The notes beneath the pieces are model-generated. The model was given only the letters and a program-made list of their open reading frames with translations. It was not told the origin of the DNA and did no database searches. From positions 1,984,001 through 2,048,000 of the forward strand of contig NC_015635.1 in assembly GCF_000270245.1 (NCBI RefSeq): DNA of 64,000 bases. The letters are read 5' to 3'. Below, one piece after another: positions 6,142-45,482 of this stretch (position 1 is the stretch's first letter; the number at the start of each line of letters is the position of its first letter). The stretch comes from Microlunatus phosphovorus NM-1 (GTDB lineage: Bacteria; Actinomycetota; Actinomycetes; Propionibacteriales; Propionibacteriaceae). The translations under genes and the position numbers were made by a program.

Positions 6142-6214
6142 GGCCCCGTTGTGTAGCGGCCTAGCACGCCGCCCTCTCAAGGCGGTAGCGCGGGTTCGAA
6201 TCCCGTCGGGGCTA
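6142..6214 (+). tRNA. tRNA-Glu (CTC anticodon), integration hotspot
   Basis: This is a 73-nt cloverleaf. The acceptor stem runs from 6142 (GGCCCCG against CGGGGCT), the D arm contains TAGCGGCCTAG, the anticodon stem is CCGCC/GGCGG with loop CTCTCAA, and the T loop is TTCGAAT. The anticodon CTC reads GAG (Glu). Its 3' half (from 6171) is repeated at 43021, 45174 and 46384, which marks it as the attachment site of tyrosine-recombinase elements. Confidence 0.95.
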
Positions 6215-6215
6215 C
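6171..6215 (+). repeat. att core in the 3' end of tRNA-Glu
   Basis: These 45 bases, from the anticodon arm to just past the tRNA end, recur exactly at 43021-43065 and with one mismatch at 45174-45218. The sequence just beyond (a ctgactaggtga-type motif) is also conserved beside the 45174 copy. This is the left boundary (attL/attB) of the integrated elements. Confidence 0.88.
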
Positions 6216-6254: not shown

Positions 6255-6490
6255 CACCTTGCCAGGTTCCTTGATCAACTCTCCCAAGGCCTCATCAGGG
6301 CCTCACGTCCTCGCCGGCACGTAGGTGGTCGAGACTACCGACCTCAGCGCCGCTGCCGTCTCCGAAGTCCGCCGTGGCGGGTCTTAGTAAGCGCGAGGCT
6401 CTCGTACTCGTTCCCATTCCGAGATGTCGCGGAGGTGCGGCCCGAGGCCAACCAAGATCGCGATGAAGCCGTGACGCAGGGTATGGATGC
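6255..6490 (-). pseudogene. Decayed 3' end of a tyrosine integrase
   Basis: This stretch is recognisably similar to 10232-10480, the C-terminal end of the intact integrase gene, including blocks around GTCAACTCTCC, TCGAGAC, CGCTGCCGTCT and CGATGAAG/CGACGAAGCTGTGACGCAGGG. The reading frame is broken and only the part covering the HxxR-to-Tyr region remains. It lies directly beside the tRNA-Glu att core, where an integrase gene would be expected, so it is a relic of an earlier element in the same site. Confidence 0.7.
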
Positions 6491-6644
6491 CCCTCAATCT
6501 CGCTTGTTCGCGGCGGACCACGGATCTGGTACAAGGACACTGCACAGAGCATCGGGCTGAAGCGACCCCGGGAATCCCGCCGATCACCCGGTGCCTTACC
6601 TAGCCACGGTGATGTTCTGTGTTGGCGATGTGGGTTCTGGGTGA

Positions 6645-9600
6645 TCAGACTTGCTCGGACAATGCTGCGGCGGCTCGGCGGACGCTGTCATTGGTCGCCG
6701 CGGTGGCCAAGTGGGTGCTGAGTTGTCGGTAGTGCCCGTGCTGGAGCTGGGCGAACCGGATACCACGTGACGATGTGCCCCAAGTGCGTCGGAGGAGACG
6801 CGCCATTCCGACCACGGCAACATTGAGTGCGCCGGCTTCGAGGCGGTGCCGCAACTCGCGTTGTCCGATACTCAGCTGCGGTGGGAGTGCGGCTAGGTAG
6901 TGCTCGCCGATCCGAACTCGCTGGTTCCAGCCGTCCGGGTCAAGGCTGAACAGGGGCAGGTCGTCGATCAAGGTTGCGAGTTCGAGGACGACCGGTCGTG
7001 TGGTTGAGCCTTCGACGTCGATCATGATCAGACCACCGGTGACGGTGGACCACAACCAGTTCCCGCTGTGCGCGTCCTTCTTTGCAAGCTGTATCGGGGA
7101 TGCCAATACCGGCGCCAGCTCGGCGGCTGCGGCGTCGGCGGCATCGACGCTGGCTAGCTGCCGGGCGGCACGACGGAACGACTGGGTGACATCTTCCGCC
7201 GCTGTTGCTGACTCTTGCCTCATTGCAGTGTGGAAGTCCCCTAGTGCCTGGGCGGCTGCTTCGAACATGCGTTGAGGGTTCGGGGCTCGTCCGTCGAGAT
7301 ACTCCATTGCATGATGGCTGAGGGTGTGGCCGGGCTGCCGGCGCATCACAAATACAGAGTCCTCGGGATCCTCGACGTCGACCACTCCGAGCGGCTCGGG
7401 AACACTCCATCCGCGTGGCGTTGCGGAGTTGGCGAGCCAACCATTCAGCTGAGTGATTGCCGCGAACTCGCGCTGTGCAGCGGCTCGGTCCACGCGTTTC
7501 AGGACGACAAGCTGTTGCGCGATCCGGTGGGGATCTTGGATGGTCGTGACCCCGCGTCGGCCCGGACGCTGCTTGCCGCCGAGACTGGCGTCGCCGGCGA
7601 CGGTGAGTTCGCAGAACTGGCAGGCGGCCTCCTGTCGGCGTATCCGGGCCGCCTCGCCGGTTAGTCGGTCGGCATCAGAGAGGGAACGCCAAGCCGTAAG
7701 GACAGGTTGCGGCTGATCTGGGGCGATCGTTGGAAGGTTGCCGGCTATTGGCGCCTTCGAGGCCCGTGCCGGTGCCTGCGGCTGCTGTGCTGCGGCTAGT
7801 TTGGCGTTGCCTGCGGCTAGGCGGACGTCCGGTGTGAGTGCACCGGCGATCATCAAACCGTCCGCGGCGGTCGTGAGGTACGAGCGCTCACCGGTCAATG
7901 CGGACAACTGGAGGGCGCAATCAACCAAGCGCAGGGCGCAGGCTGTGGTGTCAAAGGCCGGTTCAACCCTTGTCTGGATGGTCTGCTCGGCCTGCAACGC
8001 TGACAGGCCCCAAAGCAGTGCGTCGATCCAGATACCGAGGTCGTCTTCGGACGCAACATCGTCGGCGCTGGGACTAAGTCGGGCGTACGCGTACGCGGCG
8101 CGGGACGCGCCGTCCAGTGCGGCAGCCGACACAGTCTGTGCAGAACTGACGTGGGCTCTGGAAAGCTCCACTGCGCGTAGTACTCCTGCCGGCTCCGGGG
8201 GGTCGGTGAGGTACAGAGCCCGGGCCAGACGGGCGGCGTGGCCAGCGACATGGCCTCGGCCGGATGCCAGGAGTGCGGGGTGAGCGCCGTCGATCTCGAT
8301 GCGGTCGAGCATTGGCTCGGCCAACTGCTCCCAATCTGACCGGGTGAGACGGCCTTGCAGCCAGAGGGCCGATTTGGTCATCGAACCGGCCGGGACAGGC
8401 GTGCTGGGTGGCAATGATGCAGCGGACGCTGCGGCTTTGATCACTGCGTCTAGGTCGTTGTGGTCAAGTGCATCTTCGATAGCCGTACCGAGCGTTTGTC
8501 CCTCGAGTTGCGACGCCACCAGGGGCCGGTCCTGGCTGCTCATCAGTTCAGCAGCGGCGGACACGTCGGCGATAGCCGCAGCAGTGTCGGAGCGTGCTGT
8601 AGCCAGACGCGCTCGGGCGAGGAGCAGCCTGGCGACCTCGTGGTCGTGCCGGTGTGGAGCCGTTCGAGGATCGAGCCAGTCTGCGAGGGCCCGGTTGAGT
8701 TGTGTCGTGTCCCGACGACCGACCGCGTCACCGCCGCGCTCATATAGGAAGGCGTAACACCGTCCGCGCTTGGCCAGGAGATAGCCGATGTCGGCGCCCT
8801 TGTCATCCCTTGGCAATGCAACCGCTCGGTTGTAGCGGTCAAGCGCTTCAATCAGATGTGACATTGCTCGGTCGGCCTCGTGCGAGGGCACTGCCGCCGC
8901 CTTCGCGAATTCGACGTCTCCAATCAGTCCTTGCAGTGTCGCTGAATCGACGTCACGTGCTCTGGTTAGCGGCCCGGCCACCCGGGCGAAGGTGTCTTCA
9001 CCGGTCACCTCATGCAGCCGGAGGGCGAGCTCAATGGCGTAGCCGTCGTGGTCGGGTGAAAGGTCGCCGTTCCGTTCCGCGGCCGAGGAGTGGACCAGCC
9101 CGCTGCGGAGCAAGGGGACACGGCGTGGGTCGTCTCGGGCCATTGCCCGCGAGATATGCGCCGACGAGGTGGCAATCTGGGACTGTGTCATCGATTTGAC
9201 GTTGGGAGTTGCCCTGTCGTCGAGTTCGAGAAGGCTAACGTTCAGCCGAAGGCTGCGATCAAGAAGCCACGCCCCGCTGGTGGCCGTCGCTGCCTGACCG
9301 AGGCGGCGGCGGCCCTCGTGGAAGTACCGCGAGGCCAATCGGCGGCCGAGGACGATCCGGGTCATGAACTGGTTCTTCCGGGCTCGCAAGAACGCCGGTT
9401 TCATCCTGCGAGCGTCGGCCGCGAACAGGTCGGCCATGGCCTGGGAGAACACGATGGTGGTCACATCATCGAAGCGGGCGCTCATGAGCGTGAAGTGTGC
9501 GGCGATCAGCTCGTCGGGGTCGTCAGTGGAGAGACCATCCATATCATGGGGTCTCAGGGCGCTCCGGATCTGGTTCAGCCACTGGCTTGGCAGCTGGACG

Positions 9601-9659
9601 TCGTTGGCGGATAGCTCACTTGCGACGCGCTCGACGGCCGCGGCGAAACTGTTGGTCAT
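6645..9659 (-). CDS. Large helical protein with C-terminal APH/kinase-like domain
   Basis: The 1004-residue protein has an N-terminal region (about 1-640) of helical, Ala/Leu/Arg-rich segments suggestive of degenerate TPR-like repeats. A C-terminal domain (about 690-1000) has the marks of aminoglycoside-phosphotransferase/protein-kinase folds: VVLKRV (Lys 721), an EF helix Glu (731), KKDAHSGNWLW as catalytic loop (Asp 862, Asn 867) and MIDVEGS as metal-binding motif (Asp 881). A CQFC pair (680-683) precedes it. The gene starts in an ATGA overlap with the membrane-protein gene upstream, so the two are coupled. It sits between a relic integrase end and an intact integrase gene, as element cargo. 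I do not recognise the full architecture. A sensor/effector kinase of a defence system is a hypothesis. Confidence 0.8.
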   Translation of the reverse strand: MTNSFAAAVERVASELSANDVQLPSQWLNQIRSALRPHDMDGLSTDDPDELIAAHFTLMSARFDDVTTIVFSQAMADLFAADARRMKPAFLRARKNQFMTRIVLGRRLASRYFHEGRRRLGQAATATSGAWLLDRSLRLNVSLLELDDRATPNVKSMTQSQIATSSAHISRAMARDDPRRVPLLRSGLVHSSAAERNGDLSPDHDGYAIELALRLHEVTGEDTFARVAGPLTRARDVDSATLQGLIGDVEFAKAAAVPSHEADRAMSHLIEALDRYNRAVALPRDDKGADIGYLLAKRGRCYAFLYERGGDAVGRRDTTQLNRALADWLDPRTAPHRHDHEVARLLLARARLATARSDTAAAIADVSAAAELMSSQDRPLVASQLEGQTLGTAIEDALDHNDLDAVIKAAASAASLPPSTPVPAGSMTKSALWLQGRLTRSDWEQLAEPMLDRIEIDGAHPALLASGRGHVAGHAARLARALYLTDPPEPAGVLRAVELSRAHVSSAQTVSAAALDGASRAAYAYARLSPSADDVASEDDLGIWIDALLWGLSALQAEQTIQTRVEPAFDTTACALRLVDCALQLSALTGERSYLTTAADGLMIAGALTPDVRLAAGNAKLAAAQQPQAPARASKAPIAGNLPTIAPDQPQPVLTAWRSLSDADRLTGEAARIRRQEAACQFCELTVAGDASLGGKQRPGRRGVTTIQDPHRIAQQLVVLKRVDRAAAQREFAAITQLNGWLANSATPRGWSVPEPLGVVDVEDPEDSVFVMRRQPGHTLSHHAMEYLDGRAPNPQRMFEAAAQALGDFHTAMRQESATAAEDVTQSFRRAARQLASVDAADAAAAELAPVLASPIQLAKKDAHSGNWLWSTVTGGLIMIDVEGSTTRPVVLELATLIDDLPLFSLDPDGWNQRVRIGEHYLAALPPQLSIGQRELRHRLEAGALNVAVVGMARLLRRTWGTSSRGIRFAQLQHGHYRQLSTHLATAATNDSVRRAAAALSEQV

Positions 9660-10114
9660 TTCACGTCGGAGCCAGCAGCGATGTCATCCCGAGCGGCCCC
9701 GACGAATGCCTCGACCAGCCTCCGGGATTCATTGGCCCGTGCGCCGACCTCGGAGCGGTCAACGGCATCCTTGATCTTTGAGGTGGCGTCGATGGCCGTA
9801 CGGGCCTGCTGACCGATCGCGGCCTTGCCGCAAAGCAGTTGGACTCTGAACAGGGCTGCCCATGCGGCTGACCGCGTCTTGAATACGTCGTCGGCGGCGG
9901 TCGGCGTGGCCTGAATACCGTTCTCGACGTACCACCGCTCCATCAACGAGCGTCGATACTCCATCACCGCTGCGGCGAACTGCGCGAACGCCGAGATCCG
10001 GGACTCGTGAAGGGCCTTCGACACCTGCGCCCGGCTGACGGAGCGGTGGGCCAGCACCCCGCCCAAGACGACACCCAGCAATGAACCAATCACCGCGATC
10101 AGAGCCTCAAACAC
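9656..10114 (-). CDS. Small membrane-anchored protein coupled to the kinase-like gene
   Basis: The 152-residue protein has one N-terminal transmembrane helix (about residues 3-22, MFEALIAVIGSLLGVVLGGV). A charged helical cytosolic part follows (about 28-150) and is probably coiled coil in places. No enzyme motif is visible. Its stop overlaps the start of the 1004-residue kinase-like gene (ATGA), so the two are made together. A likely role is to hold the partner at the membrane or sense the envelope; this is inferred from layout only. Confidence 0.75.
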   Translation of the reverse strand: MFEALIAVIGSLLGVVLGGVLAHRSVSRAQVSKALHESRISAFAQFAAAVMEYRRSLMERWYVENGIQATPTAADDVFKTRSAAWAALFRVQLLCGKAAIGQQARTAIDATSKIKDAVDRSEVGARANESRRLVEAFVGAARDDIAAGSDVK

Positions 10115-10253: not shown

Positions 10254-11384
10254 TCAGGGTCCCATGTCGTCGCCGCCGCCAAGTAGGTTGTCGAGACGAT
10301 CAACCGCAGCGTCGCTGCCGTCTTCGAACAGTCCCCCGTAGCGGGTCAGGGTGAACGCCACACTGCTGTGGCCGGCCCATTCCGACACTTCCCGCACGTT
10401 GCAGCCCGCGGCGACCAGGATGGCGACGAAGCTGTGACGCAGGGAGTGGAAAGTCACGCCTGACAGGCCAGCCTTCTTCGCTGCTGGCCTCCAGGCCTGT
10501 TGAGAGAACGTGGCGCGGAACATGGGCCCACCCCTCGGACCGGTGAAGACCAAGGCATCGCTTTCCGGCCCGACGTGCCGACGCAAGTGCTCCTCAATCT
10601 CTCCCATGACAGCTCTGGCCACAGGAACACTTCGCTTCGACCGTCGGGTCTTGGGCTCGTTGCCGAGCGTGATCTTGCCGCCGATCTCGACGGCAGTGCT
10701 CGTGACGATGATGCGCGAGCGACGCACATCGACGCCGGCTCTGGTTAGGCCGGCGGCCTCACCCCAGCGCAGGCCCCCAAAGGCCCCTACGAGGACGAGG
10801 GCGCGGTATCGCGCTTGCATGGCATCGACGAGCGTCTCGACCTCGGTCTGCGAGAGGTATCTGGGTGCCTTGGCTCGTTCGGATGGCAGCGGCACCTTGG
10901 CTGCAGGGTTGGTCATGAGGCGCCCGTCGGCCACTGCCGCTTCGAGGCAGTGCCGGAGGGCGAAGACAGCCTTCCGGGCACTGGCCGCCGACAGGCCCGA
11001 AGCCAGCATCTCAGCAACCCAGGCGCGTACCGCGGCATTGCTGATCTTGATGAGCGGGAGCTTGCCGAACTTGGGCAGGACCTGCATGCGCATCGTGGTG
11101 TCGAGCCGTGCTCGGGTGGTCGCGCGAAGGTCGTGGCGGGTCTCGATCCAGTCCTTCGCCCATTGATCGAGCCGGATCTCGCCCCGCTTTGGATCCCGCC
11201 AGGTGCCGCCGTCCAGTTCGGTCTCGACCTGAGCCTTGCGACGCTCTGCCTCCCCAGATCGCTTGAAGGTCTCGCCGTGTTCTACGCCGGCCCAGTCGCG
11301 GTAGCGGACGCGATACCGCGTGACGGTCCGGATCCGGCCGGACGAGTCTTTTACCTGTACTTTCCTGCGCTGGATGTTTGCCAT
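10254..11384 (-). CDS. Tyrosine site-specific integrase
   Basis: This 376-residue phage-type integrase has an N-terminal arm-binding region (MANIQRRKVQVKD onward), a SAM-like core-binding domain (about 65-150) and a catalytic domain. The catalytic domain shows FGGLRWGEAAGL (Arg), FHSLRHSF (His-x-x-Arg), a GHSS motif and TLTRYG (nucleophilic Tyr). The ATG at 11384 lies two bases after the excisionase stop, so they form one transcript. It presumably recombined at the tRNA-Glu 3' end. It is separated from the att core by the kinase-like module and an integrase relic, so at least two integration or replacement events occurred. Confidence 0.93.
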   Translation of the reverse strand: MANIQRRKVQVKDSSGRIRTVTRYRVRYRDWAGVEHGETFKRSGEAERRKAQVETELDGGTWRDPKRGEIRLDQWAKDWIETRHDLRATTRARLDTTMRMQVLPKFGKLPLIKISNAAVRAWVAEMLASGLSAASARKAVFALRHCLEAAVADGRLMTNPAAKVPLPSERAKAPRYLSQTEVETLVDAMQARYRALVLVGAFGGLRWGEAAGLTRAGVDVRRSRIIVTSTAVEIGGKITLGNEPKTRRSKRSVPVARAVMGEIEEHLRRHVGPESDALVFTGPRGGPMFRATFSQQAWRPAAKKAGLSGVTFHSLRHSFVAILVAAGCNVREVSEWAGHSSVAFTLTRYGGLFEDGSDAAVDRLDNLLGGGDDMGP

Positions 11385-11386
11385 GA

Positions 11387-11587
11387 TCAGCGCCTCACGG
11401 TGTGCTGGTGGTCGGTTTGGGTTTCGAGCCAGGTTTCGACAGCGGCGCGGCGGTAGCGGATGTGCCGGCCGATGCGATAGCCGGGTGGGCCTTCTCCGCG
11501 GCAGCGCCACCCATACAGCGTGTTGACCGGAATGCCCAGCATCTCGGCCAACTCGGCCAGTGTCATCAGGCGATCGGAGGTTTCCAT
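11387..11587 (-). CDS. Excisionase (MerR-like helix-turn-helix)
   Basis: This 66-residue protein starts METSDRLMTLAELAEMLG and contains the HTH_17 pattern (LAELAEMLGIPVNTLYGWR ... RIGRHIRYRRAAVETWL) of AlpA/Xis-like excisionases. The ATG at 11587 has GAGGTGA at ideal spacing; that same sequence holds the stop of the preceding gene. It lies two bases before the integrase gene, the standard actinobacterial integrative-element arrangement. It probably directs excision. Confidence 0.9.
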   Translation of the reverse strand: METSDRLMTLAELAEMLGIPVNTLYGWRCRGEGPPGYRIGRHIRYRRAAVETWLETQTDHQHTVRR

Positions 11588-11592
11588 GGCGA

Positions 11593-12315
11593 TCACCTCG
11601 TCTCCGGTGCTGGCAGACGATCGACGACTCGCGCCCGTACGATCTCGACGTTGGGTAGCGCGATGGCGTCATGGGCCTCGTCCCAGATCGCGACGGCGAG
11701 GTCGTCGGACTCGTACTCGTTGGGGTTGGTGATGGTTGTCGGATCCCACCACCGGCTGGTCGGGCTCGCGTCGGCGGTCACGCGGACGTCGATCGGCGGG
11801 CACATTGCCTGCCCGGACGCGGCGGCGACACGCGTGAAGCGTTCGGCGTAGGCCTGGTACTCGGCCTTGTAGCGGGTGATCAGGGTGTCGATCTCGGCAT
11901 CCCAGGCATCAAGGGCTGCGTCGTCGCAGGTCGCTGACTCGTAGTGCTGACCGATTGCGTCGATGGCATCGTCGAGACCAAGTAGTCCGGGGTGGAGGTC
12001 GCTGATCTCGATGAGTTCGGCGACATTGAGGGGAACGATCAGCGGTTCGGTGCGATAGGTCCACCAGCTGTCTGGTTCGTCGCCGACGGTTCCTCGCAGC
12101 AGTGCGTCGAGGTGGCTAGCTTCCCAAGACCCGGGTCGGCGGGCTAGGAGACGGTCGGCTCCGCCGACGTTGGCAGCGGCTGAGGCGAGCGCGTGGGCGA
12201 GGAAGTCGGCGAAGTCGAGTCCGTCGACGGAACTGGTTGATTCGTGCGCGGCTCGGGTCAGGACGCGGATCGCCTCCTGCTGGAGCCCATCGCGGTCCTG
12301 GTCGAGGGCGGTCAT
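11593..12315 (-). CDS. Hypothetical protein of the integrative element
   Basis: This 240-residue acidic, mostly helical protein (MTALDQDRDGLQQEAIRVL start) has no motif I recognise. A PLIVPLNVAELIEISDLHPG block and two charged helical stretches are the most distinctive parts. Its ATG overlaps the stop of a broken gene upstream (ATGA), and its own stop sits in the excisionase ribosome-binding site. It therefore belongs to the same operon and is probably an accessory gene of this integrative element. Confidence 0.7.
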   Translation of the reverse strand: MTALDQDRDGLQQEAIRVLTRAAHESTSSVDGLDFADFLAHALASAAANVGGADRLLARRPGSWEASHLDALLRGTVGDEPDSWWTYRTEPLIVPLNVAELIEISDLHPGLLGLDDAIDAIGQHYESATCDDAALDAWDAEIDTLITRYKAEYQAYAERFTRVAAASGQAMCPPIDVRVTADASPTSRWWDPTTITNPNEYESDDLAVAIWDEAHDAIALPNVEIVRARVVDRLPAPETR

Positions 12316-35817: not shown

Positions 35818-36111
35818 GTGCCTGCTCCTCACCCGCCTGAGTTCCGCCGTCGTGCGGTCGAGCTTGCTCGTGAGCGGTCCAAGCCAGTTGCTGAGTTGGC
35901 GAAAGATCTGGGAATTTCCGAATCGTGTCTGCGTCGCTGGATGGAGCAGTCCGAGACCGACGCTGCCGGTGGTAGCGAGACGGCGTTGACCAGTCGGGAG
36001 AAGAAGGAGCTGGTCGAGCTGCGCCGGGATAAACGGCGCCTGGAGATGGAAGTCGAGATCTTGAAAAGGGCGGCCGCCTATTTTGCCCAGGAGAATGTTC
36101 TCCCAAAATAG
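35818..36111 (+). CDS. IS3 OrfA, copy A
   Basis: 97 residues: HTH (PPEFRRRAVELARERSKPVA ... SESCLRRWM) and a coiled-coil tail (ELRRDKRRLEMEVEILKRA). It ends at TAG; CCCAAAATAGTG at the junction with orfB contains a C/A run suited to -1 frameshifting. It is identical to the protein encoded at 38990-39283. Confidence 0.93.
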   Translation: MPAPHPPEFRRRAVELARERSKPVAELAKDLGISESCLRRWMEQSETDAAGGSETALTSREKKELVELRRDKRRLEMEVEILKRAAAYFAQENVLPK

Positions 36112-37001
36112 TGTACGGGCTGGTCCATGAAATGGCCGATGACGGGATTGATGTCGCGGTGGCTTGCCGGGTGCTGAATGTGTCGCGGTCGGGATACTAC
36201 GACTGGCGCGGCCGGCCTGCATCGGCACGGGAACAGGAGAACACGCTGCTGTTGAAGCTGATCGAGGAGATCCATGCCGATGAGGACATGAAGACGTACG
36301 GGGCGCCGCGGGTGCACGCCGAGCTGGTCTTGGGGCACGACCTGCAGGTGAACCAGAAGCGGGTCGCCCGGCTGATGCGCCAGGCCGGCATCCAGGGCCT
36401 GTACCGGCGGCGTCGGTCGTGGACCACGATCCGGGACCCGCACGCCATCCCCGCCAAGGACCTCGTCAACCGCCGGTTCACGGTGGACGGTCCGAACCGG
36501 TTGTGGCTGACCGACATCACCGAGCACCCGACGGTGGAGGGCAAGGTGTACTGCGCCGCGGTCATGGACGCCTGGTCCCGCCGGGTCCTGGGCTGGTCCA
36601 TCGACGACAACATGCGGAAGGAGCTCGTGGTCGACGCGCTCGGGATGGCGGTGCTGCGGCGCAACCCGATGGACGTCGACAATAACACGATCATGCATTC
36701 CGATCACGGGTCGCAATTCACATCGTGGGCATTCAGTCAGAAAGTCTATGATGCCGGGCTGGTGCCGTCGATGGGCAGTGTGGGCGACTGCTACGACAAT
36801 GCGATGATGGAGTCCTTCTGGGAGAGAATGCAACTCGAGCTGCTCGATTCGCAGGTATGGTTCACCCGGGACGAGCTTGCCAACGCGATGTTTCGATGGA
36901 TAGAATCATGGTATAATCGGAGACGTCGGCATTCGAGTATTGGAATGCTGTCGCCGATAGAGTTTGAAACCCGTTCCACAGGGTCAGACCGTCCGGGCTG
37001 A
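36111..37001 (+). CDS. IS3 OrfB, copy A
   Basis: The 296-residue transposase has LWLTDITEHPTVEGKVYCAA (Asp), MHSDHGSQFTS (Asp) and GDCYDNAMMESFWERMQLEL (Glu), and ends RRRHSSIGMLSPIEFE. The GTG at 36111 overlaps the last base of the orfA stop. The frame is intact and identical to copy B. Confidence 0.94.
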   Translation: MYGLVHEMADDGIDVAVACRVLNVSRSGYYDWRGRPASAREQENTLLLKLIEEIHADEDMKTYGAPRVHAELVLGHDLQVNQKRVARLMRQAGIQGLYRRRRSWTTIRDPHAIPAKDLVNRRFTVDGPNRLWLTDITEHPTVEGKVYCAAVMDAWSRRVLGWSIDDNMRKELVVDALGMAVLRRNPMDVDNNTIMHSDHGSQFTSWAFSQKVYDAGLVPSMGSVGDCYDNAMMESFWERMQLELLDSQVWFTRDELANAMFRWIESWYNRRRRHSSIGMLSPIEFETRSTGSDRPG

Positions 37002-37040: not shown

Positions 37041-37164
37041 AGACCACCAACGACAACACCAAGATCACCGAGGACGGGCAGCTGCCCGGACAGACCAGCA
37101 TCGACGACTTCCCCGCGACAACCGCTGACAGCACCAGCGTGCACCTGGAGGAGGACCAGGCGTG
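37041..37164 (+). pseudogene. Severed C-terminal tail of the DDE transposase
   Basis: In the frame of the interrupted transposase it reads TNDNTKITEDGQLPGQTSID to EEDQA and a TGA that overlaps the GTG of the ATPase gene. It has no start of its own. Confidence 0.75.
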
Positions 37165-37980
37165 AGCATCCAACGACTACAGGCCCACTACGGATTCACC
37201 CGGATGCCGTTCGGCCGAGGCCTCGCCCCGTCGATGCTGCACCGCCCCAGCGGACACGCCGAAGCCGTCGCCCGGATCGGCTGGTGCATCGACCAGCACG
37301 CCCTCGGCGTGATCACCGGCGAGGTCGGCGCCGGCAAGACCGTCGCCGTCCGCGCCGCCACCGCAGCCCTCGACACCAGCCGCCACGTCGTCATCTACCT
37401 GCCCAACCCCTCCGTCGGCGTCCGCGGCATGCTGCACCACGTCGTCGCCACCCTCGGCCAGGTCCCCTCCTTCTACACCGCAACCCTGGTCCCACAAGCC
37501 GCCGACGCGCTCGCCACCGAACACGCCGAACGCGGCCGCACCCCCATCGTGATCTTCGACGAAGCCCACCTCCTCGACAACGCCCAGATGGAAGCCGTCC
37601 GCATGCTCACCAACCACAACATGGATTCCGGCGCCCCCTTCGCCGCCCTGCTCGTGGGCCAGCCCACCCTGCGACAACGACTCCGCCTCGGCGTCCTCGC
37701 CGCACTCGACCAACGCATCGCCGTCCGCTACGCCCTCGCCGGCATGACCGCCACCGAGACCGGCGACTACATCTCCCACCACCTCAAGATCGCCGGCCGC
37801 GCCGACACCCTATTCAGCACCGACGCGATCACCCTGATCCACAACGCCTCACGCGGCTACCCGCGCGCGATCAACAACCTCGCCGTCAACGCCCTCACCG
37901 CCACCTTCGCCCGCAACCAGACCATCGTCGACGAGAAAGCCGCCCGCACCGCCATCTCCGAAACCGGCGCCGAACAGTAA
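37162..37980 (+). CDS. AAA ATPase (TniB/ExeA-like transposition protein)
   Basis: 272 residues. Walker A is GEVGAGKTVAV (about 53-63), Walker B is IVIFDEAHLLDN (about 128-139), with sensor-1-like LLVGQPTLRQ and a C-terminal ATPase lid (YPRAINNLAVNAL). Its GTG overlaps the original stop of the transposase (GTGA). Such ATPases (TniB, IstB, MuB-like) choose targets and activate DDE transposases. Two IS3 copies now bracket it, cutting it off from its operon's promoter. Confidence 0.88.
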   Translation: MSIQRLQAHYGFTRMPFGRGLAPSMLHRPSGHAEAVARIGWCIDQHALGVITGEVGAGKTVAVRAATAALDTSRHVVIYLPNPSVGVRGMLHHVVATLGQVPSFYTATLVPQAADALATEHAERGRTPIVIFDEAHLLDNAQMEAVRMLTNHNMDSGAPFAALLVGQPTLRQRLRLGVLAALDQRIAVRYALAGMTATETGDYISHHLKIAGRADTLFSTDAITLIHNASRGYPRAINNLAVNALTATFARNQTIVDEKAARTAISETGAEQ

Positions 37981-38099: not shown

Positions 38100-38990
38100 T
38101 CAGCCCGGACGGTCTGACCCTGTGGAACGGGTTTCAAACTCTATCGGCGACAGCATTCCAATACTCGAATGCCGACGTCTCCGATTATACCATGATTCTA
38201 TCCATCGAAACATCGCGTTGGCAAGCTCGTCCCGGGTGAACCATACCTGCGAATCGAGCAGCTCGAGTTGCATTCTCTCCCAGAAGGACTCCATCATCGC
38301 ATTGTCGTAGCAGTCGCCCACACTGCCCATCGACGGCACCAGCCCGGCATCATAGACTTTCTGACTGAATGCCCACGATGTGAATTGCGACCCGTGATCG
38401 GAATGCATGATCGTGTTATTGTCGACGTCCATCGGGTTGCGCCGCAGCACCGCCATCCCGAGCGCGTCGACCACGAGCTCCTTCCGCATGTTGTCGTCGA
38501 TGGACCAGCCCAGGACCCGGCGGGACCAGGCGTCCATGACCGCGGCGCAGTACACCTTGCCCTCCACCGTCGGGTGCTCGGTGATGTCGGTCAGCCACAA
38601 CCGGTTCGGACCGTCCACCGTGAACCGGCGGTTGACGAGGTCCTTGGCGGGGATGGCGTGCGGGTCCCGGATCGTGGTCCACGACCGACGCCGCCGGTAC
38701 AGGCCCTGGATGCCGGCCTGGCGCATCAGCCGGGCGACCCGCTTCTGGTTCACCTGCAGGTCGTGCCCCAAGACCAGCTCGGCGTGCACCCGCGGCGCCC
38801 CGTACGTCTTCATGTCCTCATCGGCATGGATCTCCTCGATCAGCTTCAACAGCAGCGTGTTCTCCTGTTCCCGTGCCGATGCAGGCCGGCCGCGCCAGTC
38901 GTAGTATCCCGACCGCGACACATTCAGCACCCGGCAAGCCACCGCGACATCAATCCCGTCATCGGCCATTTCATGGACCAGCCCGTACAC
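38100..38990 (-). CDS. IS3 OrfB, copy B
   Basis: 296-residue DDE transposase identical to the copy A product (MYGLVHEMADDGIDVAVACR start, same DDE motifs). The GTG start overlaps the orfA stop. Confidence 0.94.
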   Translation of the reverse strand: MYGLVHEMADDGIDVAVACRVLNVSRSGYYDWRGRPASAREQENTLLLKLIEEIHADEDMKTYGAPRVHAELVLGHDLQVNQKRVARLMRQAGIQGLYRRRRSWTTIRDPHAIPAKDLVNRRFTVDGPNRLWLTDITEHPTVEGKVYCAAVMDAWSRRVLGWSIDDNMRKELVVDALGMAVLRRNPMDVDNNTIMHSDHGSQFTSWAFSQKVYDAGLVPSMGSVGDCYDNAMMESFWERMQLELLDSQVWFTRDELANAMFRWIESWYNRRRRHSSIGMLSPIEFETRSTGSDRPG

Positions 38991-39283
38991 TATTTTGGGA
39001 GAACATTCTCCTGGGCAAAATAGGCGGCCGCCCTTTTCAAGATCTCGACTTCCATCTCCAGGCGCCGTTTATCCCGGCGCAGCTCGACCAGCTCCTTCTT
39101 CTCCCGACTGGTCAACGCCGTCTCGCTACCACCGGCAGCGTCGGTCTCGGACTGCTCCATCCAGCGACGCAGACACGATTCGGAAATTCCCAGATCTTTC
39201 GCCAACTCAGCAACTGGCTTGGACCGCTCACGAGCAAGCTCGACCGCACGACGGCGGAACTCAGGCGGGTGAGGAGCAGGCAC
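38990..39283 (-). CDS. IS3 OrfA, copy B
   Basis: 97-residue HTH/coiled-coil protein identical to the copy A product; same frameshift-prone junction with orfB. Confidence 0.93.
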   Translation of the reverse strand: MPAPHPPEFRRRAVELARERSKPVAELAKDLGISESCLRRWMEQSETDAAGGSETALTSREKKELVELRRDKRRLEMEVEILKRAAAYFAQENVLPK

Positions 39284-39424: not shown

Positions 39425-41236
39425 TCACGGGTGGTGGGCTGTCTTGCCATGTTGCCGAGCCCGGAGGCTGCGATGGCAGGAGGTGTGCACCAGGCGTGTT
39501 CGGTTCCCGTCCGGTGTGCCGCCTCGCCCGTGGTGGGTGAGGTAGTCGACGGCGATCGCTCTGCGGGTCACCTGCAGCCACCAGCGCTCCCATTCGTGGG
39601 GAGATTGGGGCGGCTGCCGGGGTGAGAGCAGATGGTCCCCGCACAACGGACAACGTCCGTCCTGCCTGGCGAGCAGGCGAACGTTGTACTCGTCGAGCGG
39701 GGGTGGCACCTTCCGCCGTCGGGCAGCCCAGTAGTCGGACAGGTCGGGGTCATCAGGAGATGCCGCGCCTTTGACCAGCTGGTGCCGGACGATCGATGTC
39801 CAGGAGAACTTGACCAGGTAGGGCACGTCGCCGTGCTCGTTGGCGGCGTCGCGGGCGCCGAATACCCAACGGTCGTTCCTGAACTTGTTGAACCGGCCGA
39901 AGTAGCGGCGCGCGATCCACTTCCTCGCCTTGTTGGGGTGGGTGTGGCAGCCCCATCGGTAGAGAAGCCGCCACAGGTAGTGGTCCAGCGCGGAGAACAC
40001 CCGACTGGACACCACCCCGCGGTAGTAGGCGGCCCAGCCCCGGATGATGGGGTTGAGCCGGGCGATGACCGCCCCCGCGTTCGAGCCGCGCAGGCTGCGC
40101 ACCTCGTCAGCGAGCCGTTTCCGCACACGCCGGACCGCGTCCTGGCTGGGTGTGATCAGCAGCTTGCCGGGACCATGGCCCTGGCGGTAGCGGCGGATGT
40201 TGAACCCCAGGAAGTCGAAGCCCTCTTCGAGGGCGACGACACGGGTCTTGTCTTCGTTGAAGACAAGACCCCGGGGCGCCAGCCACTCGGCCAGTCCCGC
40301 CTTGACCCGACTGACCTGCTGCTGGTCGTAGCAGCAGGCCACCATGTCGTCGGCGTACCTGACCAGGACCGGGGTTCCCGCTACTGCCTTACCGGCGTTG
40401 ACACCGTGTCGGCGGTAACGGACCCCTGCGGCCGTTTCCAGGCCGTGCAGCGCCACGTTCATCAACAGCGGGCTGATCACCCCGCCTTGCGGAGTGCCCG
40501 CCTCGGTCGGGGCGAGTCTGCCCTTCTCCATCACCCCGGCTCTCAACCACTGCGCGATCATCCCCCTGGCGGGGAAGGACCCGAGCGGGTCAAGGAGCCG
40601 GTCATGATCGATGTTGTCGAACGCGGCGGACAGGTCGGCGTCCAAGATCCACACCCGCCGGGCACGCGGCCCGTTGAGCACGGTTAACAGCAGACCGACT
40701 GCGTCCGCGCAGCCACGACCCGGTCGAAACCCATAGGAACGGGGCTCGAACCGTGCCTCCCACTCCGGCTCCAACGCGTTCCGGACCCGCGCCTGGTGGC
40801 ATCGGTCCATGAGCACCGGAATCCCGAGCGGGCGCTGCTTGCCGCCTGCCTTAGGAATGTACACACGCCGGACCGGCACCGGATCCCACGACGAACGTGA
40901 CTGGTGCACCCGCACCGCCACCTCCGCCCTGGCCGCGGAGGTCAAGGCGACCTCCCCGTCGATCCCGGCCGTCCGTCGCCCACTGTTGCGCTGGGTGACC
41001 TGCCGAACACTAAGCAACGTGTTCGACCAAGACGCCAGCATCATCTTCTGCAAGGACCGGGCCTTGACCCAGTCCTGTCCCCGCGTCGCCTTGAAGATCC
41101 TGTGCCGCAACCTCGCTACGTTCTCCTCGTGAGCACGCCACTGCACGGCGTCCCAGTCGAAGTCGTCCTTGGGTCCGTTCACCGTGATGGTGTCCAACGT
41201 GCCCCCTCGGTTCGTGAGGCCATCCGGCCTCGGCAT
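39425..41236 (-). CDS. Group II intron reverse transcriptase/maturase/HNH endonuclease
   Basis: 603 residues. The RT domain shows YIPKAGGKQRPLGIP (about 126-140), ILDADLSAAFDNIDHD, GTPQGGVISPLLMN and the catalytic RYADDMVACC (Asp 296-297). The maturase X domain covers about 370-480, and a C-terminal HNH domain has CPLCGDH ... HHGRGG ... VHTSCH zinc and catalytic residues. It should splice and mobilise the surrounding intron. The gene is complete, but its intron's domain V lies 6 kb further along because a transposon inserted just after the stop. The ATG at 41236 was chosen; no clear ribosome-binding site was assessed. Confidence 0.92.
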   Translation of the reverse strand: MPRPDGLTNRGGTLDTITVNGPKDDFDWDAVQWRAHEENVARLRHRIFKATRGQDWVKARSLQKMMLASWSNTLLSVRQVTQRNSGRRTAGIDGEVALTSAARAEVAVRVHQSRSSWDPVPVRRVYIPKAGGKQRPLGIPVLMDRCHQARVRNALEPEWEARFEPRSYGFRPGRGCADAVGLLLTVLNGPRARRVWILDADLSAAFDNIDHDRLLDPLGSFPARGMIAQWLRAGVMEKGRLAPTEAGTPQGGVISPLLMNVALHGLETAAGVRYRRHGVNAGKAVAGTPVLVRYADDMVACCYDQQQVSRVKAGLAEWLAPRGLVFNEDKTRVVALEEGFDFLGFNIRRYRQGHGPGKLLITPSQDAVRRVRKRLADEVRSLRGSNAGAVIARLNPIIRGWAAYYRGVVSSRVFSALDHYLWRLLYRWGCHTHPNKARKWIARRYFGRFNKFRNDRWVFGARDAANEHGDVPYLVKFSWTSIVRHQLVKGAASPDDPDLSDYWAARRRKVPPPLDEYNVRLLARQDGRCPLCGDHLLSPRQPPQSPHEWERWWLQVTRRAIAVDYLTHHGRGGTPDGNRTRLVHTSCHRSLRARQHGKTAHHP

Positions 41237-43020: not shown

Positions 43021-43065
43021 GCCCTCTCAAGGCGGTAGCGCGGGTTCGAATCCCGTCGGGGCTAC
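43021..43065 (+). repeat. att repeat 2 (exact copy of the tRNA-Glu 3' end)
   Basis: All 45 bases match 6171-6215. Without the 5' half of the tRNA it cannot be a tRNA gene; it marks the right end (attR) of the 37-kb island that begins at tRNA-Glu and the left end of the next segment. Confidence 0.9.
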
Positions 43066-43482: not shown

Positions 43483-44037
43483 ATGACGTACCGGCAGGAT
43501 CTGCGTGAGTTGGCACTTGACAACTATGGTCTGGTGACCACCTGGCAGGCGAGCGAGGCGGGGGTGCCTGCGGTCATGCTGCGTCAGATTGCCGCGCGGG
43601 GCGGGCTGGTGCGCCTCGGTCACGGCCTGTACCGCTTCCCTCTTAGCGAGATTCGTCCGACCTTCTTTGACCCGTTCGCTGAGGCCGTTGCCCGGGTTGG
43701 TCGAGACGCCTACCTCACCCATGACGCGGTGCTTGCCCTGCACGGGCTAGGGCTGGTCAATCCTCAGCGGATTAGGGTCGGGACACCACGGCGTGTTCGC
43801 GCCGATGTCGGCGACATGGTCCAGATCGTTCACCAGCCCACTCTTTCCGCGGCTGCGCTGACCGTGTACGAGGGGATTCCGTCGACCACAGTTGCCCAAG
43901 CTCTCGCCGACTGTGCTCGGGCTGGTCTGGTGATGCCGGAGCGGCTCGCTGACGCGCGCGACGAGGCACGCGGTCGAGGTCTCATCACAGAGCGCGAAGT
44001 GCGCAGTCTCGCCGCAGCAGAAGCAGCGGCATCGTGA
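43483..44037 (+). CDS. AbiEi-type antitoxin/regulator
   Basis: 184 residues. The N-terminal winged helix typical of AbiEi antitoxins (ELALDNYGLVTTWQASEAGV, GLVRLGHGLYRF) is followed by the C-terminal domain (YLTHDAVLALHGLG, IPSTTVAQALADCARAGLVM). It should repress its own promoter and counter the toxin encoded by the overlapping next gene. It lies between two tRNA-Glu att copies, as the only evident cargo with its partner. Confidence 0.88.
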   Translation: MTYRQDLRELALDNYGLVTTWQASEAGVPAVMLRQIAARGGLVRLGHGLYRFPLSEIRPTFFDPFAEAVARVGRDAYLTHDAVLALHGLGLVNPQRIRVGTPRRVRADVGDMVQIVHQPTLSAAALTVYEGIPSTTVAQALADCARAGLVMPERLADARDEARGRGLITEREVRSLAAAEAAAS

Positions 44038-44882
44038 GCCCGAAGCCACCGACCAGTGTCGGCCTGCTCCAGTCGCGTATGCACACTGTGGCGCAGGCGC
44101 AAGGAACCAGCCCAGCTCGGATCCAGGTGGTGATCGGTACGACAGCGCTCGCCCAGATGATGCCGGCCTGCGCTGTGAAGGGTGGTACGGCGATGAAGTT
44201 CCGGTTCGGTGGCGCCACTCGCTTCACTCGTGACCTGGACGTTGCACGCGCCGCCGATGCCGCCACCTTCAGGCAGGAACTGCAGGACTCGCTGCGAGCG
44301 GGGTGGGGCGACTTCACCGGCACCTTGGCGGAAGCGCGTGCCAAACCGGCTCCTGCAGGGATTCCCCTCGCGTATGTGATGAAGCCGTTCGATGTGAAGC
44401 TCGCCTACCGTGGACGGTCGTTCATGACGGTGCCGCTGGAGGTCGGCCACGACGAGATCGGCGACACCGCCGACGCCGAGTTGGCGCTGGCCCCCGACAT
44501 CCAGAGTCTCTTCGAGACGCTTGGGCTCCTGATCCCTGAGCCTGTTCCGGTTCTGGCTACTCACCATCAGGTTGTTCAGAAGCTACATGCCTGCACCGCC
44601 GTGGGTAGCGAGCGCGCCCACGACCTGGTCGACCTCCAGATCCTCATCGAGCACGACAAGCAGCGGCCGCTTGACCTGCCAGTCACCCGACGCGCTGCCG
44701 CGCGGCTCTTCAGCTCCCGGCACGCACACGCCTGGCCACCAGCTATCACGCCACGGCCAGGATGGGAACCGCTCTACCAAGAAGCCGCCCAAGGCATGCC
44801 TGTCCGTCCGAATCTCGACGATGCCTGTGCTTGGGGCAACGCACTCATCCAGCGCATTGACGCAGCACCGAAGGAATCGTGA
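44034..44882 (+). CDS. AbiEii-type nucleotidyltransferase toxin
   Basis: 282 residues. VKGGTAMKFRFGGATRFTRDLDVA is the GG(T/S)...R-x-(S/T)-x-D-x-D signature of AbiEii/AbiGii toxins. FDVKLAYRGR follows, and the C-terminal HHQVVQKLHACTAVGSERAHDLVDL contains the K...D...DL motif of the family. The GTG start overlaps the AbiEi stop (GTGA). Family members are nucleotidyltransferases that block growth or phage by modifying tRNA or other targets; here that role is inferred. Confidence 0.88.
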   Translation: MSPKPPTSVGLLQSRMHTVAQAQGTSPARIQVVIGTTALAQMMPACAVKGGTAMKFRFGGATRFTRDLDVARAADAATFRQELQDSLRAGWGDFTGTLAEARAKPAPAGIPLAYVMKPFDVKLAYRGRSFMTVPLEVGHDEIGDTADAELALAPDIQSLFETLGLLIPEPVPVLATHHQVVQKLHACTAVGSERAHDLVDLQILIEHDKQRPLDLPVTRRAAARLFSSRHAHAWPPAITPRPGWEPLYQEAAQGMPVRPNLDDACAWGNALIQRIDAAPKES

Positions 44883-45173: not shown

Positions 45174-45218
45174 GCCCTCTCAAGGCGGTAGCGCGGGTTC
45201 GAATCCCGTCCGGGCTAC
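45174..45218 (+). repeat. att repeat 3 (one mismatch to the tRNA-Glu 3' end)
   Basis: It matches 6171-6215 except for a C in place of G near the end (GTCCGGGC against GTCGGGGC). The flanks on both sides resemble those of repeat 2 for roughly 70-100 bases (AAGTCTGAAACCTAGTTTGA against AAGTCTGAAACCTGGTTTGA). Confidence 0.88.
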
Positions 45219-45316: not shown

Positions 45317-45482
45317 CAGCGGCCAAGCAGATTGTCGAGCCGGTCCACCCCGACGTCACTGGCATCCCGGAAGACCCGCCGTAGCGCGTCAGCGTGAAAG
45401 CCACACTGCTACTTCCGGCTCACTCGGATACCTCGCGGGCGTTGCAGCCAGCGGCTACCAGAATCGCGACGAAGCTGTGACG
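45317..45482 (-). pseudogene. Relic integrase C-terminus next to att repeat 3
   Basis: On the minus strand it reads FVAILVAAGCNAREVSE, a stop where Trp is expected, then SSVAFTLTRYGG. This matches FVAILVAAGCNVREVSEWAG and SSVAFTLTRYGG of the intact integrase at 10254. It is the third integrase 3' end in the window, again beside a tRNA-Glu att copy. Confidence 0.8.

What the first reader, a model, noticed from the sequence alone, without database searches (positions are those of the whole stretch)
6645..10114. Possible new two-gene system: membrane-anchored small protein coupled to a giant helical kinase-like protein
Seen: an ATGA overlap joins a 152-residue one-helix membrane protein to a 1004-residue protein with about 640 residues of helical repeats and a C-terminal APH/kinase-like domain (Lys 721, Asp 862, Asn 867, Asp 881). 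It is cargo next to an integrase at a tRNA hotspot. Known: many antiviral systems pair a membrane part with a repeat-sensor/enzyme fusion and travel in such islands. Inference: the repeats sense, the kinase domain is the effector or signal enzyme, and the small protein localises it.
Basis: partly seen in the sequence, partly recalled or inferred. Interest (0 to 1): 0.85.

Follow-up and report, generated by a model that had tools for sequence, protein, structure and literature searches.

The report
Giant kinase kin to kinase-KptA fusions
A large helical protein with an intact-looking kinase domain sits on a mobile DNA island; most of its relatives also carry an enzyme that strips phosphates from RNA, which suggests, but does not prove, that this kinase family puts phosphates on RNA.

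Summary
An ATGA overlap (9656-9659, minus strand) joins a 152-aa one-helix membrane protein to a 1004-aa protein whose C-terminal third is an APH-type kinase fold (AlphaFold pLDDT 86; PF01636 43 bits) with its catalytic residues kept. The pair lies on a 36.9-kb tRNA-Glu island bounded by a 45-bp direct repeat.

The two-gene reading does not hold: in 26 genomes with kinase relatives the small protein is found in 2, on other contigs.

In 24 of 29 members scanned the same chain also has a Tpt1/KptA RNA 2'-phosphotransferase domain. The window protein lacks it, and its genome has no KptA. Two other KptA-less members share a unit with an NTPase-WD40 protein and an LCAT-like hydrolase.

Best reading: a solenoid-kinase phosphorylating RNA (perhaps a 2'-OH) or another hydroxyl in a mobile conflict or stress system, with fused KptA as eraser elsewhere. 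Substrate and defence role are inferred. Seven open-access searches listed no paper on the fusion.

The parts
6645..9659 (-). 1004-aa protein: helical N-terminal part (about 1-640) and C-terminal APH-type kinase domain (about 690-940); no KptA domain
   Evidence: Frame; PF01636 43.0 bits over residues about 718-901 (not listed by hmmscan); model of residues 636-1004
9656..10114 (-). 152-aa protein with one N-terminal membrane helix, GTG start, ATGA overlap with the kinase gene
6142..6215 (+). tRNA-Glu (CTC), integration site
6171..6215 (+). Left copy of the 45-bp direct repeat (3' end of tRNA-Glu)
43021..43065 (+). Exact second copy of the 45-bp repeat, right end of the 36.9-kb island
45174..45210 (+). 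Third, shorter copy (37 bases), right end of a 2.1-kb tandem segment
10254..11672 (-). Tyrosine integrase of the island
   Evidence: PF00589 2.6e-22

Best explanation
The 1004-aa protein belongs to a sparse, mobile actinobacterial family built as helical solenoid, then APH-fold kinase, then (in most members) a Tpt1/KptA RNA 2'-phosphotransferase. Shown: the family, the kinase fold and residues, KptA in the same chain in most relatives, no KptA in this protein or its genome, and residence on a tRNA-Glu island. Inferred: the solenoid recognises a ligand or RNA-protein target; the kinase moves phosphate from ATP to a hydroxyl, most economically a 2'-OH of an RNA such as tRNA, because the enzyme fused to it elsewhere removes just such phosphates with NAD+. 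In KptA-bearing members the mark would be reversible; in this KptA-less form it would be lasting and act as an effector or protective mark in a stress or anti-phage response. The small membrane protein would be a local add-on that tethers the kinase, not a conserved partner.
For: Kinase: PF01636 43.0 bits against a cut-off of 23.2, hhalign with six APH proteins of the same genome at the D..N and D motifs (probability 80, E 1.3e-5), AlphaFold model pLDDT 86.3, pTM 0.85, catalytic residues invariant. KptA in 24 of 29 members scanned, matching solved KptA structures (7.7e-16); one chain with all three parts modelled at pLDDT 87.2. Archaeal ArkI and KptA write and erase tRNA 2'-phosphate (PMC9095486, passages). 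Island.
Against: No activity was tested. The RNA substrate rests on fusion logic only, and the window member lacks the KptA part. The family's best-fitting known fold class, APH, mostly has small-molecule substrates (recalled), and the only PDB sequence lead is a weak one to an antibiotic phosphotransferase (E 0.032), not to ArkI. Defence-gene enrichment was not shown. The window's place in the tree is unsure (branch 3.2). No structure search could be run.
Confidence: 0.38

Rival explanations
1. The kinase acts on a protein or a small molecule (a nucleotide or antibiotic-like compound); KptA, where present, acts on that product or on something else. The protein is an effector or signalling enzyme of a conflict system.
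For: APH matches; the weak PDB lead is a corramycin phosphotransferase (E 0.032). PMC7159879 (passages) lists a few active APH kinases as effectors that might phosphorylate small molecules. Two KptA-less members sit beside an NTPase-WD40 protein and an LCAT-like hydrolase.
Against: It leaves the KptA fusion in 24 of 29 members unexplained, since KptA's known substrates are RNA 2'-phosphates (PMC6333775, passages), although that paper leaves open a non-RNA phospho-substrate.
Confidence: 0.3
2. RNA end-healing: the kinase phosphorylates 5'-OH ends and KptA clears the 2'-phosphate left after ligation, as in fungal tRNA splicing.
For: A kinase and Tpt1 are both steps of that route (PMC6333775 for Tpt1; the kinase step is recalled).
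Against: Known 5' kinases of that route are P-loop enzymes (recalled), and I noted no RNA ligase among the neighbours, though none was searched for by name (searches show only the first 25 families).
Confidence: 0.12
3. The KptA part of the family is an ADP-ribosyltransferase toxin or capping enzyme, and the kinase supplies phosphate ends or controls it; the window form has lost the toxin.
For: Tpt1/KptA-like proteins can ADP-ribosylate RNA phosphate ends (PMC11833690, passages). The fused domains are divergent (58.6-78.4 bits against 111-174 for the other full-length matches).
Against: RH pair, RxxYGH and other KptA motifs are kept, as expected of a working 2'-phosphotransferase. It does not explain kinase-only members.
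Confidence: 0.1
4. One reading: a dedicated two-gene membrane antiviral system in which the small protein places the kinase at the membrane.
For: ATGA overlap and membrane helix in the window. A two-gene system with a one-helix 5' partner exists in actinobacteria (System 4, PMC7159879 section 33).
Against: Pairing not found elsewhere; no caspase domain by Pfam in the window protein.
Confidence: 0.08
5. A drifting, no longer working member of the family.
For: Longest branch in the tree (3.2) and no KptA.
Against: Open frame, gene-like composition and every catalytic residue kept; four other KptA-less members exist; no KptA remnant in the window (best chance-level tblastn hit E 0.08).
Confidence: 0.1

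Closest known systems
APH family kinases (PF01636)
   Same: Fold order, lysine, D..N catalytic motif and metal Asp
   Different: R or K instead of the His two places before the catalytic Asp (family; His in 5 of 6 own-genome APH proteins); very large helical N-terminal part; KptA fused in most relatives
ArkI and KptA of archaea (reversible tRNA 2'-phosphorylation, PMC9095486, passages)
   Same: A kinase and a KptA that could write and erase the same mark
   Different: There two separate proteins, kinase of COG2112/AQ578; here one chain in most relatives and kinase only in the window; no ArkI entry among PDB sequence matches. The paper reports active ArkI homologues in some bacteria too, so a bacterial RNA 2'-kinase as such is not new
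Tpt1/KptA (PF01885)
   Same: C-terminal domain of 24 of 29 scanned relatives
   Different: Absent from the window protein and its genome; fused copies score lower than the other full-length ones
EACC1/caspase 'System 4' and caspase-alpha/beta-hydrolase conflict systems (PMC7159879)
   Same: One-helix 5' gene with a Gly-rich helix before a large gene (window); NTPase-WD40 protein with caspase-like start (my reading) plus hydrolase beside L060 and L061
   Different: No caspase match in the window protein and no EACC1-type Pfam match in the small one

Membership tests
APH-type kinase (PF01636) | Match over Pfam's curated cut-off | tested here: met
   43.0 bits against 23.2 in the genome search; not listed by hmmscan up to E 1, which I ascribe, untested, to HMMER's speed filters
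APH-type kinase (PF01636) | Catalytic D....N and metal-binding D, with ATP-site K | tested here: met
   D862, N867, D881, K721
APH-type kinase (PF01636) | His two places before the catalytic Asp (motif recalled) | tested here: not met
   K860 in the window, R or K in A5 rows (partly by construction of the scan pattern); His in 5 of 6 APH proteins
APH-type kinase (PF01636) | Kinase fold by comparison with solved structures | not tested
   Fold search never accepted
Tpt1/KptA (PF01885) | KptA domain in the window protein | tested here: not met
ArkI (COG2112) | Sequence relation to ArkI | tested here: inconclusive
   No ArkI among the 4 PDB matches up to E 1; ArkI sequences were not compared directly
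EACC1 System 4 | Caspase (or cNMP cyclase) domain in the 3' gene | tested here: not met
   No such Pfam match in the window protein
Known anti-phage systems | Match of either protein to a PADLOC model | tested here: not met
   0 families for both up to E 1

The most novel reading that the evidence does not exclude
Actinobacteria carry an unrecognised mobile RNA 2'-phosphorylation system: one polypeptide that writes (APH-fold kinase) and erases (KptA, NAD+-dependent) an RNA 2'-phosphate under control of a helical sensor. The window holds a writer-only form that marks RNA lastingly as an effector of a tRNA-island conflict system. It would be a source of 2'-phosphate for bacterial KptA that is physically joined to it.
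Probability: 0.27. Interest if true: 0.9.

Novelty: new variant of a known kind. Interest (0 to 1): 0.66.

Why it matters
Tpt1/KptA is widespread in bacteria while its natural substrate there is largely unknown; phosphorylation of an internal 2'-OH by a kinase was one proposed source (PMC6333775, passages), and ArkI homologues of some bacteria have been shown to phosphorylate tRNA (PMC9095486, passages). A chain that joins a different, APH-type kinase to KptA in 24 of 29 scanned relatives makes the question directly testable: give it ATP and RNA, look for 2'-phosphate, then add NAD+. A mobile, eraser-less form beside immune-like genes would add RNA 2'-phosphorylation to the possible effector chemistries.

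Tried and rejected
Rejected. Six of its neighbourhoods were read by open-frame list only.

Phage or plasmid carriage of the kinase: no match with the whole protein in viral contigs, plasmids and phages, none with the profile in viral contigs; the 13 plasmid matches of L009 all lie in its KptA part.

Defence-island enrichment: 108 neighbour proteins (up to two nearest per side at 28 of 29 loci, L025 having none; at least 130 and at most 1900 aa; home-made gene caller; window not included) against 117 proteins from 20 sites that I chose in 7 genomes. PADLOC models matched at 1e-10: 32 against 68, of which 25 each were shown; the control shows CRISPR type III, PD-T4-6 and mad models, the neighbours type IIG restriction, AbiU, AbiLi, DolB, AriA, GajA and mad models. 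The tally does not say how many proteins were hit. Inconclusive, no enrichment claimed.

Recent loss of a KptA domain in the window: no remnant. Sequence repeats in the helical part: none found. The whole-protein scan of genome contigs found nothing before the profile scan.

Rows dropped before counts: weak matches L014-L018, L059/L064, L072; L041 (gene split over frames, not scanned by Pfam).
Full report
What is there. On the minus strand, 9656-10114 (GTG start, 152 aa) overlaps 6645-9659 (ATG, 1004 aa) by ATGA, between tRNA-Glu(CTC) at 6142-6215 and a tyrosine integrase at 10254-11672. By hmmscan neither protein has a match over a curated cut-off in Pfam or NCBIfam, nor any match in PADLOC up to E 1; PHROGs gives one weak match (E 0.2) for the small one. 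The genome is one contig of 5,683,123 bases; from memory that is the published size of Microlunatus phosphovorus NM-1, and no call names it.

The island. The last 45 bases of the tRNA gene (6171-6215) recur exactly at 43021-43065, and 37 of them at 45174-45210. The pair is thus cargo of a 36.9-kb tRNA-Glu island, followed by a 2.1-kb tandem segment with an AbiEi/AbiEii pair (43483-44037 and 44034-44882; PADLOC 4.6e-57 and 9.4e-98). Pieces like the integrase lie at 45375-45482 (36 residues, 92% identical) and 6414-6509 (34 residues, 50%), as stacked or decayed islands would leave.

The family. With the whole protein, 6 of 394 genomes of the class matched, its own included; the 5 others match in the kinase part at 26-35% identity, in open frames of 765-1364 aa. 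A profile of the kinase part gave one strong further member among 396 genomes of the phylum (L019) and 22 loci in GTDB genomes, all actinobacteria by title. That last scan used one pattern around D-A-H..N-W, so it can only find members with this motif. A profile of the window's side gave 6 of 342 genomes of the order: its own, L060, L061, L062, a duplicate of L024 and one weak match. Counting duplicates once, 30 distinct loci are known here. The family is sparse: in 20 genomes of the genus only two weak matches besides the window; in one other genus of the order 2 of 38 genomes. None was found in phages or viral contigs, nor in plasmids by the whole protein.

The kinase. In the alignment of the window with the 5 relatives the invariant columns include G700, D709, K721, G777, D862, A863, H864, N867, W868, D881, P889, A895, D900 and R914; the same columns are invariant in 25 members, where those of the D-A-H..N-W motif are partly forced by the scan. 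Pfam APH scores 43.0 bits on the window protein in the six-frame search of its genome (cut-off 23.2). hmmscan did not list it; I suspect HMMER's speed filters but did not test this. By hmmscan APH matches 5 of 25 members, L019 over the cut-off. The family profile aligns with six APH proteins of the same genome at the D..N and D motifs (probability 80, E 1.3e-5). AlphaFold2 gives residues 636-1004 mean pLDDT 86.3 and pTM 0.85, with a strand-rich first lobe and a helical second one. A structure search could not be run.

The KptA link. PF01885 matches 22 of 25 proteins scanned together, and also L007 and L062; L060 and L061 have no Pfam match. So 24 of 29 scanned members have it; L041 was not scanned. 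Where its place was shown it lies after the kinase. The domain of L022 matches solved KptA structures (7.7e-16) and the fused copies keep an invariant RH pair, RxxYGH and further Arg and His columns. [quoted passage not shown] that all four are kept is my inference from motifs. The model of L022 has helices over 24-511, the kinase over about 518-812 and KptA from about 827 (pLDDT 87.2, pTM 0.81). In a class sample KptA occurs in 60 of 335 genomes at 61 places; 4 of them are these fusions (58.6-78.4 bits), the other full-length matches score 111-174; a 790-aa frame in G307 was not examined.

The window's form. The window protein has no KptA, nor has its genome, and no remnant lies in the window. 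Five members lack it: window, L008, L043, L060, L061. In a tree of 26 kinase domains (without L041, L060, L061, L062) a branch with support 99/99 holds window, L008 and L043 together with two KptA-bearing rows; the window's own branch is very long, so its place is unsure, and the KptA-less rows are not shown to be one clade. L060 and L061, two species of one genus, share three genes: kinase (50% identical), an NTPase-WD40 protein of 1396 and 1363 aa (42%; its caspase-like start is my reading, not a Pfam match) and an LCAT-like hydrolase (65%). A 2020 survey describes caspase with alpha/beta-hydrolase pairing and a few APH kinase effectors in such systems (PMC7159879, passages and section 33).

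The small protein. One Gly-rich membrane helix at the N-terminus. Relatives exist in actinobacteria, on other contigs than the kinase in the two kinase-bearing genomes that have them. It is not a conserved partner. Its likeness to the EACC1 helix is a lead only.

How it most likely works. Shown: a kinase with intact active site, a helical N-terminal part by homology, a mobile setting, and a family in which the same chain usually carries an RNA 2'-phosphate remover. Inferred: one part makes what the other removes, as ArkI and KptA do for tRNA Up47 in archaea (PMC9095486, passages). In the window the eraser is missing, so the mark would be lasting. I give 0.38 to the whole chain, about 0.9 to family and kinase assignment, and under one half to a defence role. 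Defence-type genes occur near single loci (Type ISP restriction enzyme beside L039, TIR protein near L043), but the neighbour tally against a control is inconclusive.

Novelty. Seven open-access searches listed no paper that I could see to describe a kinase-KptA fusion; I read passages of PMC9503650, PMC11833690, PMC9095486, PMC6333775 and PMC7159879 only. A 2016 survey of RNA repair in conflicts (recalled) is not held, so an earlier mention cannot be excluded. The parts are known kinds, and bacterial ArkI homologues with tRNA kinase activity are in print; the fusion and the eraser-less mobile form appear new.

Noticed in passing
43483-44882 (+): AbiEi/AbiEii toxin-antitoxin pair (PADLOC 4.6e-57 and 9.4e-98) in the 2.1-kb segment between the second and third repeat copies.
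   Followed up: partly
39428-41236 (-): Reverse transcriptase protein on the island (PADLOC RT 4.1e-47), probably of a group II intron.
   Followed up: no
35818-37001 (+) and 38100-39283 (-): Two copies of one transposase gene pair in opposite directions, with the same lengths and the same first residues in the listing, on either side of an ATPase-like gene at 37162-37980.
   Followed up: no
6957-7508 (-): PF01636 scores 43 bits in the genome search but hmmscan on the same protein did not list it: a warning about missing hmmscan matches.
   Followed up: partly
L009:12177-17621 (-): 1814-aa protein upstream of the kinase-KptA gene with no Pfam match up to 0.001; its C-terminal part reads like an ATPase.
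   Followed up: no
L039:9671-13105 (+): Type ISP restriction-modification protein 33 bases after the kinase-KptA gene (PF18135 7.7e-73).
   Followed up: no
L007:8852-11948 (-): Kinase-KptA relative apparently split over two open frames of 706 and 283 aa; not joined.
   Followed up: no
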